From: Alphaproteobacteria bacterium
GTDB lineage: Bacteria > Pseudomonadota > Alphaproteobacteria > UBA7887
Direction of reading: 5' to 3'
Assembly: GCA_030739735.1 (NCBI GenBank)
Contig: JASLYQ010000001.1
Span: forward strand, 1 to 64,000
DNA length: 64,000 bases
The translations under genes were made by a program, and so were the position numbers. Each line of letters begins with the position of its first letter. Position 1 is the first letter of the stretch. This document shows positions 1 to 10,082 of the stretch, piece by piece. The notes under the pieces are model-generated. The model saw nothing but the letters and a program-made list of their open reading frames with translations. It made no database searches and was not told where the DNA came from.

Positions 1-526
1 CTCGGCCCGCGCCCGGTGCTGCGGGCGAGTGCAAGCGCATGCCTGCTTATCGTCGGCCAGGCGCCAGGCACCCGCGTGCATGCCTCGGGCTTCCCTTTCG
101 ACGATCCCTCGGGTGACCGCCTGCGGGGCTGGCTCGGTATCGCCAAGACGCCCTTCTACGACCAGAGCCGCATCGCGATCATGCCCATGAGCCTGTGCTA
201 TCCAGGCCGCAACCCAAATGGCGGCGACGCGCCGCCCAGGCCTGAATGCGCGCCTGCCTGGCATGCGCGCGTGCTGGCAGCGCTACCCGGGCGTCGACCT
301 GACCTTGCTCGTCGGTGGCTATGCCCAGCGGTATTATCTCGGTGATGCCGGCAGGGCTGCCGTTGGTGCCACGGTCGCCAACTGGCGTGAGCACCTGCCC
401 ACCTATCTGCCGCTGCCCCACCCGAGCTGGCGCACCCGTGCCTGGGTTGCCAGGCGCCCCTGGTTCAAATGCGAGTTGCTGCCGGCGCTGCGCCACCGCA
501 TCGCCGCCCTGCTCGCCCCTCGTTGA
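1..526 (+). pseudogene. Uracil-DNA glycosylase-family protein, frameshifted, 5' end outside window
   Basis: The reading frame is open from base 1 and begins beyond the left edge. It carries the UDG-superfamily motif GQAPG near base 50, then the FDDPSGDRLRxW and PxSLCYPG segments. Near bases 284-296 homology jumps from frame 1 (ending PAWHARVLAALPG) to frame 2 (continuing VDLTLLVGGYAQRYYLGD). Removing one base there restores a continuous protein of about 175 visible residues ending at a TGA at 524-526. Family members excise uracil from DNA, so loss would affect base-excision repair. A single-base sequencing error would give the same picture. The family call is firm; the pseudogene call is not. 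Confidence 0.75.
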
Positions 527-562: not shown

Positions 563-655
563 GGAGAGGTGGCCGAGTGGCTGAAGGCGGCGGTTTGCTA
601 AACCGTTATACGGAGACAATCCGTATCGGGGGTTCGAATCCCCCTCTCTCCGCCA
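563..655 (+). tRNA. tRNA-Ser, anticodon GCT
   Basis: A complete class II tRNA. The acceptor stem GGAGAGG (563-569) pairs with TCTCTCC (645-651), with a G-T at the last pair. The D arm is typical of serine tRNAs. The anticodon loop TTGCTAA has GCT at 597-599. A long variable arm lies around 606-626, and a 5-bp GGGGG/CCCCC T stem encloses TTCGAAT. The discriminator is G652 and CCA is encoded at 653-655. It follows the frameshifted UDG gene by 36 bases. Serine tRNA genes are common integration targets, but no second copy of the tRNA 3' end was seen in the window. Confidence 0.97.
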
Positions 656-787: not shown

Positions 788-916
788 ATGCGCCGCATAG
801 CCGCCACACTCGCCGTCGCCGGAGCGCTTTTGTTTAGCGCCGGATCGGCATGGGGAGATTTTTATGATAGCTTAGCGGCGGCTCAACGAGGTGATCAATA
901 TCAATCAACATGGTGA
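788..916 (+). pseudogene. Remnant start of a secreted Sel1-repeat-type protein (42 codons)
   Basis: An ORF of 42 codons starts at ATG 788. It begins with a clear signal peptide (MRRIAATLAVAGALLF..., cleavage probably after SAWG), followed by DFYDSLAAAQRGD, which resembles the opening of Sel1/TPR repeat proteins. It then stops at 914-916 inside the start of the next gene. The repeat domain is missing, so I read it as a gene truncated when the downstream sequence became joined to it. It could instead be a short secreted peptide or an upstream ORF influencing the next gene. The family assignment rests on a short stretch. Confidence 0.4.
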
Positions 917-1623: not shown

Positions 1624-2967
1624 TTGGACGAAAGCGCAGCAATCCTGGCGATTGGTGATATCCACCTTGGCACCGTTTGCTCGAGCGTACCTGACGAAAT
1701 TTCGTCCTGGGGGCTCGACCGGAGTGAGTTGACGCCTGCGGGCGCTCTCAATCTGTCAGTTGATTTTGCCATTGAACAGAAGCTGGATGCAGTGCTGTTC
1801 GCGGGCGACGTCGTCGAAAGCACCAATGCCAGGTTTGAGGCAATGGCGCCACTCGAAGACGCTGTTCGACGTCTGCTGGATGCAAAAATTCAGGTTATTG
1901 CTGTCGCCGGCAACCATGATGTCGACGCCCTGCCGAGACTAGCGGCTCTGATAGAGGGGTTCACCATAGTGGGTGCCGGCGGCCATTGGGAATCGCGAAC
2001 CATATTGAAGAACAAGGCCCCCATTGCCGAGGTCATAGGCTGGTCCTTCAACGAACAGAAGGTGCGTCGAAGCCCAGTTGCTCAGCTCTTGGCAGAGCCG
2101 TTGGATGAACCGTCAACCCGTATTCCCAGAATTGGCTTGCTGCATGCCGATCTCGATGCATCCGAGGGGCATTACGCACCCATCCGACAGGCAGAGCTCG
2201 ATAACACCGGCTACGATGCTTGGCTTCTTGGTCACATTCACAAGCCTTCGCTCGACGGCCTGGCTGCGGCGGGGAGGTCCCGGCCATGTGGCTATCTCGG
2301 ATCGCTGGTTGGGCTCGACCCATCTGAAACAGGCCCACACGGTCCTTGGCTTCTGAGGGTGCCCGATAGCGGCCCGCTGCGCATGACGCAGGTGCCGCTC
2401 GCGCCGCTGCGATGGGAACACATCTCGGTCTCGGTAGAGGGGCTCGAGCACGTAGAGGATGTACCTGATCGATTAATGGACGAGGCCACAAACATTGCTC
2501 AGCAAGTCACCAAGTCGGGTCCTGCGCCGCGCGCGCTCGGTTTGCGTGTTCGCCTGACAGGGGCAAGCCCCCAATATGAAAAAATCCGCCAGGCGATTGG
2601 CGCCGGCGCATGGAACGGTTTGGGGCGCAACGTCGACGGGACCACGGTCTTCTTCAACAAGATCATCGACACCATGGAACTGTCGCTGGATCTCGTGGAG
2701 ATTGCCAAGGGAGACGACCCGCCCGCCTTGATGGCGCGACGGCTCTTGAGCCTTGAGCACAACGATGACCAGTCGAGGGAATTGCTCGAGAAGGCGCGCG
2801 CTGAGCTGAGCAATATCGCCCGCGAAGACCGCTGGTCGCCCCTTCAGGATCATCGCAACGCGACCGACCCTCTCTCCGAAGATGCCATGCGCGAGCTTCT
2901 CCACCGATCCGGAAAGGCAGCCCTGAACGCCATGCTCTCCGGTAATTCGCAGGTCGATCCGTCGTGA
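1624..2967 (+). CDS. SbcD/YhaO-like metallophosphoesterase, DNA repair nuclease subunit
   Basis: 447 aa. The calcineurin-like nuclease motifs appear in order: AIGDIHLG (D12, H14), FAGDVVES, VAGNHDVD, LLHADLD and LLGHIHKPS. These bind two metal ions and cut DNA ends in the Mre11/SbcD family. The C-terminal half would be the capping and partner-binding region. The start is a TTG at 1624, nine bases after a GAGGCAGG stretch. The gene overlaps the ATPase gene by four bases (GTGA at 2964-2967), so the two are translationally coupled and should form one complex. It is closer in layout to YhaO, which pairs with a membrane-anchored YhaN ATPase, than to classical SbcD. Confidence 0.82.
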   Translation: MDESAAILAIGDIHLGTVCSSVPDEISSWGLDRSELTPAGALNLSVDFAIEQKLDAVLFAGDVVESTNARFEAMAPLEDAVRRLLDAKIQVIAVAGNHDVDALPRLAALIEGFTIVGAGGHWESRTILKNKAPIAEVIGWSFNEQKVRRSPVAQLLAEPLDEPSTRIPRIGLLHADLDASEGHYAPIRQAELDNTGYDAWLLGHIHKPSLDGLAAAGRSRPCGYLGSLVGLDPSETGPHGPWLLRVPDSGPLRMTQVPLAPLRWEHISVSVEGLEHVEDVPDRLMDEATNIAQQVTKSGPAPRALGLRVRLTGASPQYEKIRQAIGAGAWNGLGRNVDGTTVFFNKIIDTMELSLDLVEIAKGDDPPALMARRLLSLEHNDDQSRELLEKARAELSNIAREDRWSPLQDHRNATDPLSEDAMRELLHRSGKAALNAMLSGNSQVDPS

Positions 2968-5900
2968 AGCTCAAACGTCTTGCCATTAATCTGCTGCCTG
3001 GGATCAGCCCGCCATTCGAGATCCAAGCGGCAGGTGCCGGGTTCCACGTCGTTGTCGGGCCTAACGGCATCGGCAAATCGAGCCTTTGCCGCGCGGTTGA
3101 GAGTCTGTACTGGGACGACCGTGGATCGTCACAAAAAACCTCGATAAATGGCGAGTTCGAGTTGGATGGTGAAGCCTGGTGGGGGGAACGAGAGGGTTCA
3201 CGTGTGCGATGGCAACGCAGCGGCGAGGACAGTAAGCCGCCCAATCTGCCGGCATCCCATAATCATCGCTATTTTTTTCTGCATCTGCGAGATCTGATCG
3301 ATCCGTCGTCGGACGGCACGCAAGACATTGCCTCTGAGATCCGGCGCCAGATGTCTGGTGGGTTCGATCTGGATCGTATCGCGGCTGACTTGTTCGGTGG
3401 CGTGAGCGCACAGCATGTCCGCCGCGAGCGGAGCGATTTTAACAAGGCATCGGAAGATGTGCGAAATGCGGAAGGAACGCAGTTGGGCCTTCAGCGGCGT
3501 GCGGATCAGCTGGATATCCTCAGCGAGCAACTCGCCGCGGCAGAATCCGGCGCGCGCCGTCTCATATTAGTCGAACGTGCCCTCGAGCTTACCGGACGCC
3601 TTCAGGAGAACTCAGCCATTGCGGAGGAGATCGCTATCCTGCCGCAGGGGGTGGCGAAACTTGCCGGCAATGAGCTCGAGCAGATCGAGCGGTTCCAGGA
3701 TCAGATTGCCGGGTTGAACGAGCGAGGCCGTAACTGGGAGGCACAGCTTGACGCTGCACGCAAGACCAAACAGGCCACACGCCTGTCGGCGCCTCTGGAT
3801 CAGGCAGAACTGTCTATCTTGCGAGAGAATGCAAACGCGGTGGGCCGGTTGGAACTCGAACTACAGGCAGCAAGAGACAAGCGTAGCGAGTGTCTAACGG
3901 CTGTAGCGGTATCCCTGAAGGCGCTAGGCGGCGGCGAGGTCGATGAGACCGGTCTGACCCTGCCCGACAATCACCAGCTGTTCGAATTCCTGCGCGACGC
4001 CGAAGGGCACAGAGCTGAAATCAATGCCATAGAGAAAGAACTGGGTGTCCTCGCCTATATCGAGAAACCGGAAGCCGAGCAAAGTGCGCTAGGTGACATG
4101 CGCCGCGCGGGCGATATGTTGCGTGCGTGGCTGCGCGCGCCAGAGCTGCAAGCACCTGTACTGCCACGTCGGGCGTGGATCCTAGGCGGCGTGGGCGTCG
4201 TCGCTGTCGGCCTTGGTCTGGCCGCCTTGGCTGACCCGCTGTTTGCGGCGCTGGCGGCCTTTGGCGCCGGGCTCGCCGTGCCGGCCTTGCTGCGGGGCCG
4301 TGGGCAACCCCATGGCGGCACACGGGACGCCGCACAGCAAGCGTTCGCGAGGCTCGGCATTGCAGAACCCGAAGCATGGGATATTGCTTCCGTCGATGCG
4401 CGATTACGCAGCCTAGAGGACGACATATCCCGCATGGTGCGAGCGCGAGATCGTGATGTGGAGCGGCAAAAACTCAACAGTCGATTGGAAGGCTTGTCCA
4501 AGGACGGAAAAGTACTTGATGAGAGACGTCGGGAGCTGGCGGATAGTTTACGGCTCGATGAGATCCCGCCCGACGCGGAGCTTGTCGAAACGGTTCGCTC
4601 GCTCGCTCAATTGGCCACGGCTCGCAAGGATGACGAACGCGCCCGTAGCAAAGTCGAGACCCTCGAGACCCGGTATACAGCACTGCTATCCGGGCTCGCC
4701 GACGTATTCGAACGCCATGGTGAGGCGCAGCCGGCAGACGCCACAGAGACGGCGGCCTACCTCGATAGTCTCATCTATCGCGATGCGGGGTTGGCTGGGG
4801 CGCTTTCCGACGAGCAAGGTGCAATCTCCGGATTGGAACAGGTTTCAGACGATCGCAGCGCGTATCTCAGTTCGATAGAGCGAATCTATTCAGAAGTCAG
4901 CCTGGACGATGGCGATTTGCAAGGGCTCACGCTGCTGCTGAACTCATTGCCGAGTTATCGCGACAGGAAGGAAAAGGGAACGAGGCTTGAAGGGCAGATT
5001 GAACTCGATAGGGCCGAGCTTGCGAAGGCTGGCGAAGCCGAGCTCGCCGAGTGCGACGGACCGATGCTCGAACGGCTACAAGGCGACCTTACTCAGACGG
5101 CGAGTAAAGCGGCCGGTTTGCGCGACGAGATCGCCGAGATCAATGCTCAGGTGAAGGAGGCTCAACGCGGTAGCAATGTACAAGACTTCATTGCTGTGCG
5201 TGATGAAGCCCGAATGAAACTGTCAGACTGCCGCGACGAAGTGCTTTTCGCAAAGGCCGGAAAATTTCTCATTGATGCGGCCGAGGCAGAATATGAGCAA
5301 ACGCAGATGCCTCATGTGTTCCAGCGTGCGCGTAGTCACTTGTCTGCCTTTACCCGTCACGGCTATGAACTTCATTTGGGCAAAGACACCACGTCACCGG
5401 GATTGCTGGCGATCGAAACGAGCAGCGGAGAAAGACGAAACCTGGATGAACTTTCGGACGGTACGCGAGCGCAGTTATTGCTGGCCGCACGTCTCGCTTT
5501 CGCCGAGGAAGTGGAGCAGGGTGGGATACTTCCGCTGTTTCTCGATGAGGCGCTCGATCAGAGTGACCCTGCCCGTTTCGAAGCCATCGTGCGCAGTCTC
5601 GGCCAAATTGCGAAGGATCAGGATCGCCAGATCTTCTATCTCACCAGCGACCCGGTGGATGTTGATCGCATCGGCAACGCGCTTGCCGAAGAGGGGTGCG
5701 ACATAGCAGCCACGATCGATGTCGGCTTGATCCGCCGGAATGCCGCAAGCTGTAGCGATCCCGCCGCACTTTGTGTTGAGCCAAGACCTGAGATTCCGTT
5801 GCCCGACGAAATGTCAGCCGAGGACTATGGTATCGTTTTGGGGGTGCCGGCATTCTTGCCGGGAGCCGGGCATGAGCCACAGCACGTCTTCTATGTCCTA

Positions 5901-6434
5901 TCGGACGCGCTTGACCAACTGCGCGACTTCCTCGCGGCCGGAATCGAGCGTGTCGGTCAATGGCGGACAGCCTCCGATACCGGGCTCGCCGAGCAGCTGT
6001 GCGCAGGCTCGCTCTCTGCGCAGGAGGTTACCGCCCGCGTGGCTTTGCTCGGGCATTTCTGCGCGCTATGGAAGCAGGGGAGAGGCCGGTCTGTCGATCG
6101 TGACACACTCGAGCAGAGCGGCGCTGTAAGTGGCACCTTCATCGACAAGATAACGGCGGCTAACGATGAGCTTGGTGGGGACGCGGAAAGACTTCTCGCG
6201 TCCCTTGATGCCAAGAATGATACCCGGCTGAAGGGGTTCAGGCGAAACAACCGTGATAGCCTTGAAAGCTATCTCAGGAGCGAAGGTTATCTCGATGACC
6301 AACCGGTGCTGAGCGAGAGCGAGTTACGGCTTCAGGCCATGGCGACGCCGGCCGCAAACACCCTGCCAAGAGACAGCGCCGGAGATCTGTTACATCGTTT
6401 GTGGACCTGGGCAACACGGTCTTCAGACGCATAG
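2964..6434 (+). CDS. SbcC/YhaN-like AAA ATPase with C-terminal extension
   Basis: 1156 aa. Walker A GPNGIGKSS lies at 32-40, a long coiled-coil region follows, then a signature-like LSDGT near 830-834 and Walker B LFLDEALDQSD with D861/E862. Two hydrophobic stretches at about 404-443 interrupt the coiled coil, as in YhaN, which has a membrane segment where SbcC carries a zinc hook. No CxxC hook is visible. Past the ATPase domain there is an extra region of about 230 residues (from about 925) that I do not recognise; it looks helical. The start is the GTG overlapping the nuclease gene stop. The likely role is DNA-end tethering and processing with the nuclease partner; a defence role is only a guess. 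Confidence 0.8.
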   Translation: MKLKRLAINLLPGISPPFEIQAAGAGFHVVVGPNGIGKSSLCRAVESLYWDDRGSSQKTSINGEFELDGEAWWGEREGSRVRWQRSGEDSKPPNLPASHNHRYFFLHLRDLIDPSSDGTQDIASEIRRQMSGGFDLDRIAADLFGGVSAQHVRRERSDFNKASEDVRNAEGTQLGLQRRADQLDILSEQLAAAESGARRLILVERALELTGRLQENSAIAEEIAILPQGVAKLAGNELEQIERFQDQIAGLNERGRNWEAQLDAARKTKQATRLSAPLDQAELSILRENANAVGRLELELQAARDKRSECLTAVAVSLKALGGGEVDETGLTLPDNHQLFEFLRDAEGHRAEINAIEKELGVLAYIEKPEAEQSALGDMRRAGDMLRAWLRAPELQAPVLPRRAWILGGVGVVAVGLGLAALADPLFAALAAFGAGLAVPALLRGRGQPHGGTRDAAQQAFARLGIAEPEAWDIASVDARLRSLEDDISRMVRARDRDVERQKLNSRLEGLSKDGKVLDERRRELADSLRLDEIPPDAELVETVRSLAQLATARKDDERARSKVETLETRYTALLSGLADVFERHGEAQPADATETAAYLDSLIYRDAGLAGALSDEQGAISGLEQVSDDRSAYLSSIERIYSEVSLDDGDLQGLTLLLNSLPSYRDRKEKGTRLEGQIELDRAELAKAGEAELAECDGPMLERLQGDLTQTASKAAGLRDEIAEINAQVKEAQRGSNVQDFIAVRDEARMKLSDCRDEVLFAKAGKFLIDAAEAEYEQTQMPHVFQRARSHLSAFTRHGYELHLGKDTTSPGLLAIETSSGERRNLDELSDGTRAQLLLAARLAFAEEVEQGGILPLFLDEALDQSDPARFEAIVRSLGQIAKDQDRQIFYLTSDPVDVDRIGNALAEEGCDIAATIDVGLIRRNAASCSDPAALCVEPRPEIPLPDEMSAEDYGIVLGVPAFLPGAGHEPQHVFYVLSDALDQLRDFLAAGIERVGQWRTASDTGLAEQLCAGSLSAQEVTARVALLGHFCALWKQGRGRSVDRDTLEQSGAVSGTFIDKITAANDELGGDAERLLASLDAKNDTRLKGFRRNNRDSLESYLRSEGYLDDQPVLSESELRLQAMATPAANTLPRDSAGDLLHRLWTWATRSSDA

Positions 6435-7559: not shown

Positions 7560-10082
7560 TCAACCGAACGGTTTCCAAAGTAAAATTAGCTTTGGCAGTA
7601 CAGTGAGTGCTGCCAAAAACGCGATGAGCATTGCCGACGCGACTAGCACACCAAAATAGATAGTGGGGATGAAGTTTGAAAGGACCAAGATAGAGAAGCC
7701 AAAAATTATGGTCATGGCCGTATAGAACACCGCTTTGCCGATATTGGAATGACAAACATGCAAGGTATCCACATAACTGTGAGTAAGTGCATACTCTTCT
7801 CTGAAGCGATAGATATAGTGAATACCATTATCCACTGCGATACCGATGGTGATGGCAGCGATCGTGATGGTCATCATATCCATGGGGATTTCCGCCCACC
7901 CCATTACCCCCAAAACCACCGCGGCACCTAGCAGGTTTGGCAGAATGCCGATAATTGCCAAGGTGACTGACCGGAACAACACTAGGAACATTATCGCAAT
8001 CCCCAACATCACTACACCTATGGTTTTGATCTGCGACTTGAATAGGCTCTGCAGCATGTTGTTGTAGAGAACCAGTAGTCCACTCACGATCACTTCCTGC
8101 TCCTCAAATCCGAGCTTCTCCCCTAAATCACGGTGTACTGTCTCGAGCAACTCATTGCGACGTAAATTCGGTTTTGAATCCAATACACGTGCAAAAATCC
8201 GTGCCTCATTGTCATCGATGGAGACATAAGGGTCGATGAGCATCTTTTTTACATCGGGGGGAATTTTGGTGTACAGGATTGCCAGCTCGAATGCGCCCAA
8301 TTCCTCTTCGGCTATGCCTTCCGCAACCCGCACCGGTGACACGAGCGAAAGCACCTTGCCGATTTCGGGCAGTCCATCGAGGTAGTCGTGTACTTTTTTG
8401 ATGAGTTCGACCTTGTAGGCGGTAAACCAATACTCCGGTAACTTGGCGTTTTTTGCGAATTCACGCTCCATTTCCGCGTACTCAAGCTCCATTTGTATCT
8501 CTTCCTCGCTCAACCCCTCGAGGTCCTCTGGGGTCGGGAAGTAGTCGGAGCCATCGTCGTCGAGATCATCTCCAAAATTTATCAGTATTTCCAGTGGAGT
8601 AGTGCCGCCAAGGTTCTCATCAATGTGCTTGAGACCTTGATAAATCTCGGTGTTGTCGCTGAAGTAGTTGATGAAACTGTTCTCCACACGCAACCGGGTT
8701 ATTCCGGCTACACTCACGACGGTTAAAATTAGCGCCAACACCAGGATCTTGTTGCCCTGTATCTCGGTCATTCGGGCCAGATATTCAGGCAAAAGAAACC
8801 GGCCACTGTCGGAGGTGGGTTTGGACTCGGTTTTTCCCGTCACCATCAGCAACGTGGGGAACAGTAGAAACGAGGTGACAAATGTTACCGCCAAACCGGC
8901 ACTCATCATCCACCCGAAGTCAATGACCGGCTTGATTTCGCTCACGACCAGGGAACTAAAACCTATGATCGTAGTTAGCGCGGTATAAAGACAGGGTTTC
9001 ACCATCTTATGCGTGGTAGTTTTGACCAGCGCTAATTGATCGTCACCAGGATGATCTCGATTGAGTTGTCGGTAACGCACGATCAAATGAATGTTCATAG
9101 AGATGGTAATGATTAGCATAAGAGCGAGGAAGTTTGATGAAATTACGGTGACCTTCCAACCCATCAAACCCAGTACACCTACCATGGATAACCCGGCATA
9201 AAAGCAACTGAGAAGTGGGAGCGCTATCCAGCGAAATTCTCGGAAGATAGCGGTGAGAATAATGACAAGAAATGCTAGAACACCACCGCCAAAGACGATC
9301 AAGTCGTTGCGTACAAATGTCACCATATCATCGGTAATCATCGGCAGGCCGCCGAGATATAAAACGCCATGCTGACGGTACGGCTTGATGATGTTCCTGA
9401 TGTGTGCAACATCGAGGTGGCGTTGCTTATTCAACGCATCATGAGCCTGATCGAATTCAGCGTTGATGTGTTTCAGGGCATGCGCTTCTTTGACGGAGAG
9501 ACCGCTATTTTGTTGTTTGGCCCGCAGCTCATTTCGAGATCGAAGTAAACTGTCGTACTGCTGCTCCTCGACTAATCCCAACAGTAATGCGGTGGTTCGA
9601 CCATCTGCACTTATGATCAGTTCGCGGTAAATGGGGCTATTGAGAAGCTCGTCTTTGGCCTTGGCTCGATCGATCCCGGGTTTCTCCAGGCTTGGAATAT
9701 CGTCGATCATTTCCGTGAACGGTGCGTCTGAAATGTTCAACAGGGGAGCGTCCAGTATCGTAAACACCGTGTCCACGCTGGTGATTTCCGCGAGTTCTTC
9801 ACGGAGTTGCTTCAAAGAGGCTAAAGCCTGGTCCGAGAAGAGATCCTCATCGGGAGTGAACGTCACGACGAGCAAGTCGCCACTCGGATATCGCTCGTGG
9901 ATTTTCCGGAACACCTTGAGGTCTACGTCGTCTTCCAGCAACAAGGAGTCGGCTGATGCGTCCAACTTGAAGTCTTTTGCGTGGTAGCCGAAAAAAACTA
10001 GAATCGAGAGCAGCACGACCAGGACTAACTTGGGATAGTGGAGCACCAGAGTGTCATAGGCCTGCACGGTACGAGACGACAT
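7560..10082 (-). CDS. RND-superfamily (MMPL-type) exporter
   Basis: 840 aa. One membrane segment near residues 17-35 precedes a large periplasmic loop. Five to six membrane segments lie around 250-400, then a second N-terminal-type segment near 437-455, another periplasmic loop rich in Asp/Glu, and a final cluster near 680-835. This two-fold repeat is the RND/MMPL layout. Such proteins move lipids or hydrophobic molecules using the proton gradient. The ATG at 10082 follows an AGAGGAAAC site. Base use differs from the neighbours: a sampled 60-base line (8041-8100) is 48% GC against 58% at 14281-14340. No partner adaptor or channel gene is adjacent. It looks laterally acquired; the substrate is unknown. 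Confidence 0.82.
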   Translation of the reverse strand: MSSRTVQAYDTLVLHYPKLVLVVLLSILVFFGYHAKDFKLDASADSLLLEDDVDLKVFRKIHERYPSGDLLVVTFTPDEDLFSDQALASLKQLREELAEITSVDTVFTILDAPLLNISDAPFTEMIDDIPSLEKPGIDRAKAKDELLNSPIYRELIISADGRTTALLLGLVEEQQYDSLLRSRNELRAKQQNSGLSVKEAHALKHINAEFDQAHDALNKQRHLDVAHIRNIIKPYRQHGVLYLGGLPMITDDMVTFVRNDLIVFGGGVLAFLVIILTAIFREFRWIALPLLSCFYAGLSMVGVLGLMGWKVTVISSNFLALMLIITISMNIHLIVRYRQLNRDHPGDDQLALVKTTTHKMVKPCLYTALTTIIGFSSLVVSEIKPVIDFGWMMSAGLAVTFVTSFLLFPTLLMVTGKTESKPTSDSGRFLLPEYLARMTEIQGNKILVLALILTVVSVAGITRLRVENSFINYFSDNTEIYQGLKHIDENLGGTTPLEILINFGDDLDDDGSDYFPTPEDLEGLSEEEIQMELEYAEMEREFAKNAKLPEYWFTAYKVELIKKVHDYLDGLPEIGKVLSLVSPVRVAEGIAEEELGAFELAILYTKIPPDVKKMLIDPYVSIDDNEARIFARVLDSKPNLRRNELLETVHRDLGEKLGFEEQEVIVSGLLVLYNNMLQSLFKSQIKTIGVVMLGIAIMFLVLFRSVTLAIIGILPNLLGAAVVLGVMGWAEIPMDMMTITIAAITIGIAVDNGIHYIYRFREEYALTHSYVDTLHVCHSNIGKAVFYTAMTIIFGFSILVLSNFIPTIYFGVLVASAMLIAFLAALTVLPKLILLWKPFG

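What the first reader, a model, noticed from the sequence alone, without database searches (positions are those of the whole stretch)
1624..6434. Extended YhaO/YhaN-like nuclease-ATPase pair next to tRNA-Ser
The coupled nuclease and ATPase look like an SbcCD relative, but the ATPase has hydrophobic stretches in place of a zinc hook and about 230 extra C-terminal residues of no recognised family. The position just past a tRNA-Ser and a truncated gene is one where islands insert. It could be a repair complex with a membrane tether, or an anti-phage DNA-end sensor.
Basis: partly seen in the sequence, partly recalled or inferred. Interest (0 to 1): 0.6.

Follow-up and report, generated by a model that had tools for sequence, protein, structure and literature searches.

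The report
Mobile Mre11-Rad50-like pair with membrane hairpin
Two overlapping genes encode a DNA-end nuclease and its motor that resemble the universal Mre11-Rad50 repair machine, but the motor carries a membrane-spanning hairpin where the zinc hook should be and an unknown tail; the same pair turns up on plasmids of salt-loving archaea and scattered through a few bacteria, as a mobile accessory system would.

Summary
The pair lies at 1624-2967 (nuclease, 447 aa) and 2964-6434 (ATPase, 1156 aa), overlapping by 4 bases. The nuclease is Mre11/SbcD-type with every metal-binding residue intact. The ATPase has a Rad50/YhaN-type head, two long arms, a hydrophobic hairpin (about 403-446) at the apex with no CxxC hook, and a 230-residue C-terminal extension matching no Pfam family or PDB chain. 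All three features recur together in full-length homologues on haloarchaeal plasmids (about 27% identity) and in three species of another bacterial genus, so this is a coherent subfamily. Two ordinary YhaN proteins from the same class lack both hairpin and extension. Its distribution is very patchy: none of 8 other genomes of the order, about 0.5% of class genomes sampled, and 3 of 10 species in one genus, at three different sites. The tRNA-island argument is weak: the tRNA 3' end is not repeated, and the 'truncated gene' is a frameshifted gene cut by the contig edge. Some archaeal neighbours match defence families, others replication or recombination genes. Most likely it is a mobile, membrane-tethered, ATP-gated nuclease acting on DNA ends or hairpins, plausibly against invading DNA; defence remains untested. 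The extension's structure could not be predicted.

The parts
1624..2967 (+). Mre11/SbcD-type metallophosphoesterase nuclease, 447 aa (YhaO-like)
   Evidence: Metallophos 1.3e-12; family profile matches Mre11/SbcD structures to 1.1e-13; D12 H14 D62 N97 H98 H174 H204 H206 identical in 9 of 9 homologues
2964..6434 (+). Rad50/YhaN-type coiled-coil ABC ATPase with C-terminal extension, 1156 aa
   Evidence: AAA_27 over cut-off; family profile matches Rad50 structures to 1.7e-8
2964..2967 (+). 4-base overlap of the two genes (translational coupling likely)
   Evidence: the same overlap is annotated in most archaeal homologues
3057..3080 (+). Walker A (GPNGIGKS, residues 32-39)
   Evidence: conserved in all 7 aligned
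4170..4301 (+). Hydrophobic helical hairpin (residues ~403-446) at the apex of the coiled coil, in place of a zinc hook
   Evidence: best 19-residue hydropathy peak 2.1-2.6 in each of 7 homologues; two ordinary YhaN peak at 1.65 and 1.1
5451..5477 (+). ABC signature LSDGTRAQL (residues 830-838)
   Evidence: of the YhaN form (SDGTRDQ/SKGTRFQ), not the SbcC form (LSGGES)
5532..5549 (+). Walker B with catalytic Glu (PLFLDE, residues 857-862); the switch (H-loop) histidine that should follow T894 is absent
5736..6431 (+). C-terminal extension (residues ~925-1156), no known family; helical in low-confidence models
   Evidence: conserved in archaea and bacteria; no Pfam or PDB match
563..655 (+). 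tRNA-Ser(GCT), context only; no duplicated 3' end found

Best explanation
The two genes make a Mre11-Rad50-type complex of a distinct, mobile subfamily. Shown by sequence: an intact Mre11-type nuclease; an ABC-ATPase head with Walker A, signature and Walker B; two long arms joined by a hydrophobic hairpin with no zinc hook; and a conserved C-terminal extension. Inferred: ATP binding clamps the heads on DNA ends or hairpins and positions the nuclease to cut, as in SbcCD. The hairpin holds the apex of the arms in the cytoplasmic membrane, so the active heads work in the zone just inside it. The extension is a partner- or DNA-binding module that sets specificity. Because the pair is rare, patchy and at different sites, and occurs on archaeal plasmids among defence and replication genes, its most likely job is to process or destroy foreign DNA with free or hairpin ends. 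The anatomical part is about 90% likely; a role against foreign DNA about 45%.
For: Nuclease catalytic residues invariant in 9 homologues; PDB profile matches to Mre11 and Rad50; hairpin in all 7 ATPases, absent from two ordinary YhaN of the same class; extension 27-31% identical to archaeal homologues, against 18-24% for the coiled-coil arms, so it is under constraint. Patchy: 0 of 8 other genomes of the order; only the window genome and G194 full-length among 385 class genomes; 3 of 10 species of G194's genus, excluding a misbinned contig, beside unrelated genes in each. Full-length homologues on haloarchaeal plasmids of several genera; some neighbours match TmtA, a CARF protein, a defence helicase and ZorE-like HNH. 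No over-threshold SbcD in 9 family genomes, so it is not simply a duplicate of a resident SbcCD there.
Against: The window's own neighbourhood is metabolic, not a defence island; the copies in G194, G752 and G755 also lack obvious defence neighbours in the stretches read. Archaeal neighbours include a polymerase/primase-like protein and UvrD + PD-(D/E)XK helicase-nucleases, equally fitting plasmid replication or recombination. No functional data exist. Membrane insertion is inferred from hydropathy only. Neither structure prediction of the extension was usable (pLDDT 37.6 and 43.3).
Confidence: 0.5

Rival explanations
1. An accessory DNA-repair or recombination nuclease: it processes the host's or plasmid's own broken ends or hairpins, standing in for SbcCD where that is missing, with no dedicated role against invaders.
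For: Nuclease and head are those of a repair enzyme; no over-threshold SbcD in the 9 family genomes, so there may be a vacancy; archaeal neighbours include UvrD/PD-(D/E)XK and primase/polymerase-like genes.
Against: None of 8 other genomes of the order has it, so repair there does not need it; presence and absence within one genus at different sites is unlike a repair gene.
Confidence: 0.35
2. A selfish-element or plasmid-maintenance function: the pair serves the element that carries it, for example by processing its replication intermediates or attacking competing elements.
For: The archaeal copies found are on plasmids or a secondary chromosome; a primase and a polymerase-like gene lie close by in some; an IS110-like transposase start follows one bacterial copy (read by eye).
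Against: The bacterial copies are on contigs with ordinary metabolic genes and no replicon genes in the stretches read; the plasmid contexts differ from one another. The plasmid collection holds only plasmids, so chromosomal archaeal copies could have been missed.
Confidence: 0.15
3. It is just a member of the widespread YhaO-YhaN family with unremarkable lineage-specific variation.
For: AAA_27 over its cut-off; YhaN-type signature; nuclease closer to a class YhaO (E 2e-14) than to E. coli SbcD (2e-5).
Against: Two class YhaN proteins lack both hairpin and extension and are alignable only in the head; the two traits travel together across domains of life.
Confidence: 0.2

Closest known systems
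YhaO-YhaN (PF13514 AAA_27 ATPase plus metallophosphoesterase)
   Same: Two-gene order, Mre11-type nuclease, AAA_27 P-loop, GTR-Q ABC signature, no CxxC
   Different: Class YhaN examples (L016, L018) have no hydrophobic hairpin, no extension, and keep the switch histidine (THH). From memory, B. subtilis YhaN may have membrane segments; this could not be tested here.
SbcCD / Mre11-Rad50
   Same: Nuclease plus coiled-coil ABC ATPase with Rad50-type head; catalytic residues intact
   Different: No zinc hook, LSDGTR instead of LSGGE signature, no switch histidine, extra C-terminal 230 aa; SbcD NCBIfam model scores 41.9 bits against a cut-off of 77.65
Lamassu (LmuA/LmuB; PMC10586767)
   Same: Patchy Rad50-like ATPase with a nuclease-type partner in many cases, thought to sense DNA ends or hairpins
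   Different: LmuB is ~650 aa, in many cases with a hook, and generally Walker B Glu-to-Gln; here 1156 aa, Glu intact, and the partner is a Mre11-type nuclease rather than an LmuA effector; PADLOC LmuB hit only E 2.8e-5 within the coiled coil

Membership tests
YhaO-YhaN | ATPase passes the PF13514 (AAA_27) gathering score | tested here: met
   25.6 bits against 22; all 7 aligned members match AAA_27 at E of 1 or better, best 1.4e-5
YhaO-YhaN | Adjacent metallophosphoesterase nuclease | tested here: met
   1624-2967, overlap 4 nt; BLASTP to a class YhaO 2e-14
YhaO-YhaN | ATPase ends shortly after Walker B and the H-loop | tested here: not met
   About 230 further conserved residues; of 71 matching genomes in the phylum sample only the window's own aligned over the whole extension
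SbcCD / Mre11-Rad50 | Mre11 metal-binding residues | tested here: met
   8 of 8 invariant in 9 homologues
SbcCD / Mre11-Rad50 | Zinc hook (CxxC) at the coiled-coil apex | tested here: not met
   No CxxC anywhere in P0001; hydrophobic hairpin instead
SbcCD / Mre11-Rad50 | NCBIfam SbcD cut-off | tested here: not met
   41.9 bits against 77.65
SbcCD / Mre11-Rad50 | ATP-dependent nuclease on ends and hairpins | not testable with these tools
   needs biochemistry
Lamassu | LmuB model match and LmuA effector partner | tested here: not met
   LmuB 2.8e-5 in coiled coil only; no LmuA-like partner; partner is Mre11-type
Anti-phage defence system (any) | Match to a described system in PADLOC-DB | tested here: not met
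   Only weak, partial ATPase or phosphoesterase hits
Anti-phage defence system (any) | Protection against phage or plasmid | not testable with these tools
   needs plating and transformation assays
tRNA-integrated genomic island | Direct repeat of the tRNA 3' end and a recombinase | tested here: not met
   No match of 14 or more bases, nor the last 30 bases with up to 6 mismatches, elsewhere in the window; no recombinase among proteins tested. Sequence upstream of base 1 is lost at the contig edge.

The most novel reading that the evidence does not exclude
A previously undescribed immune system shared by haloarchaea and bacteria: a membrane-anchored Mre11-Rad50 complex, perhaps ATP-locked by loss of the switch histidine, that catches DNA ends at the membrane as foreign DNA enters and cuts them, with the C-terminal extension as the recognition or regulatory module.
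Probability: 0.25. Interest if true: 0.75.

Novelty: new variant of a known kind. Interest (0 to 1): 0.5.

Why it matters
Mre11-Rad50 complexes are held together at the tips of their arms by a zinc hook. A subfamily in archaea and bacteria that puts a membrane hairpin there implies nuclease heads reaching into the cytoplasm from a fixed membrane point, a geometry suited to meeting DNA as it enters. If so, it extends the set of SMC/Rad50-like immune machines beyond Wadjet and Lamassu, and gives a compact two-gene system in which tether, head and tail can be deleted separately.

Tried and rejected
AlphaFold of the extension with the only two sequences the tool admits gave pLDDT 37.6 and 43.3; no fold search was run on those models. 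Weak Pfam hits of the extension (Ish1 0.04 and 0.15 at the same place in two members; Spike S2 chain 0.024 in PDB) were set aside as not significant. Three scans of viral contigs and a phage-genome search found no relative. The copy in G749 was rejected as independent: its contig is 99% identical to the window including neighbours, in a bin with 7% contamination. The CDP-alcohol phosphatidyltransferase 56 bases upstream was considered as a third partner and rejected because other genes stand there beside the other bacterial copies. Seven literature searches found no description of such a pair.

Full report
The feature is real. The nuclease gene (TTG 1624-2967, 447 aa) overlaps the ATPase gene (GTG 2964-6434, 1156 aa) by four bases. 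The nuclease matches calcineurin-like phosphoesterases (1.3e-12), and a profile of its family matches Mre11 and SbcD structures (1.1e-13). The eight residues aligned with the Mre11 metal-binding and catalytic positions are identical in nine homologues. The ATPase passes the AAA_27 cut-off, and its family profile matches Rad50 heads (1.7e-8). Its signature LSDGTRAQ is of the YhaN form, not the LSGGES of E. coli SbcC.

Three features set the ATPase apart. (1) A hydrophobic hairpin at about residues 403-446, between arms of roughly 240 and 315 residues, with no CxxC; all seven homologues examined have it, while two YhaN proteins of the same class do not. Both flanks are basic in the window protein, which fits both ends in the cytoplasm (direct reading, inference). 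(2) The extension ~925-1156: 43% identical to the copy in genome G194 and 27-31% to archaeal copies, better conserved than the arms at 18-24%, with no Pfam or PDB relative. (3) The histidine that follows the Thr aligned with T894 in YhaN (THH), or the Ser in SbcC (ISH), is Ser or Ala throughout the family. Slow ATP hydrolysis is a possible consequence, but this is inference, since some related ATPases also lack it (from memory).

Distribution. Full-length homologues of the ATPase, nuclease beside it, occur on plasmids of several haloarchaeal genera; one further record holds only a 370-residue C-terminal fragment, and one copy is on a secondary chromosome of a halophilic archaeon. In bacteria it was found in the window genome and in G194 among 385 class genomes (a loose first look, so a lower bound). 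It is absent from eight other genomes of the order, several of them incomplete, and from all others in a phylum sample as judged by alignment over the extension. In G194's genus four of eleven genomes matched, but one, G749, carries a contig 99% identical to the window with the same neighbours and is probably misbinned. The remaining three copies sit beside different genes: a dioxygenase-like gene and an AMP-ligase (G194), an epimerase (G752), and a GGDEF/EAL gene (G755) (neighbour names read by eye). This is how a mobile accessory pair behaves.

Context. In the window the flanks are a CDP-alcohol phosphatidyltransferase, a nitrilase-family hydrolase and an MMPL transporter, then metabolic genes. 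The tRNA-Ser at 563-655 has no repeated 3' end in the window. The glycosylase-like gene before it is cut by the contig end and frameshifted. The same glycosylase-tRNA order in another genus is followed by different genes, so the site varies, but insertion at the tRNA is not shown. Archaeal neighbours are mixed: TmtA, a CARF protein, a defence helicase and ZorE-like HNH, and also a polymerase/primase-like protein, UvrD and PD-(D/E)XK proteins. No background rate was measured, so this is suggestive only.

Mechanism. From established knowledge of Mre11-Rad50 (SbcCD): ATP-bound heads clamp DNA and the nuclease cuts ends or hairpins. The hairpin would replace the hook, fixing the apex in the membrane and leaving the heads in the cytoplasm. 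A role against incoming DNA is the reading I favour, at about 45%, over accessory repair at about 35%; the rival likelihoods in this report overlap and are not meant to add to one. Compared with Lamassu (PMC10586767), which is Rad50-like, patchy and thought to sense DNA structures, it differs in size, intact Walker B glutamate, lack of hook and Mre11-type partner. It is therefore not filed as Lamassu, nor as SbcCD; it is an outlying, extended subfamily nearest to YhaO-YhaN.

Limits. The census is sampled. The extension's structure is unsolved and membrane location is predicted from hydropathy alone.

Noticed in passing
window 788-916: A signal-peptide-like ORF start (MRRIAATLAVAGALLFSAGSAWGDFYDSLAAAQRGDQ...) ends after 42 codons just where the next gene begins, like the stump of a secreted protein gene; possibly a rearrangement scar.
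   Followed up: partly
window 1-526: Uracil-DNA-glycosylase-like gene whose 5' part is lost at the contig end and which changes frame near base 290 (pseudogene or sequencing error).
   Followed up: partly
window 7560-10082: MMPL-family transporter gene with clearly lower G+C (about 0.49) than its surroundings (0.58-0.66), a candidate recent arrival.
   Followed up: no
L064 (G749:C18): Contig 99% identical to the window over the pair, with the same neighbours, but binned in a genome of another family; probably misbinned, and suggests a second strain carries the pair.
   Followed up: yes
L011 and L052 (NZ_CP119813.1): Halorussus plasmid holds two oppositely oriented copies of the region; in one, the extension is a separate ORF.
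   Followed up: partly
L051, L011, L019: UvrD helicase and/or PD-(D/E)XK nuclease genes (AddAB-like; in L019 by eye) lie near the archaeal pair in three different hosts; could be a functional partner.
   Followed up: partly
L065:14075-14117: Start of an IS110-like transposase (MTYYCGIDLHSNN, read by eye) about 250 bases after the pair in G752.
   Followed up: no
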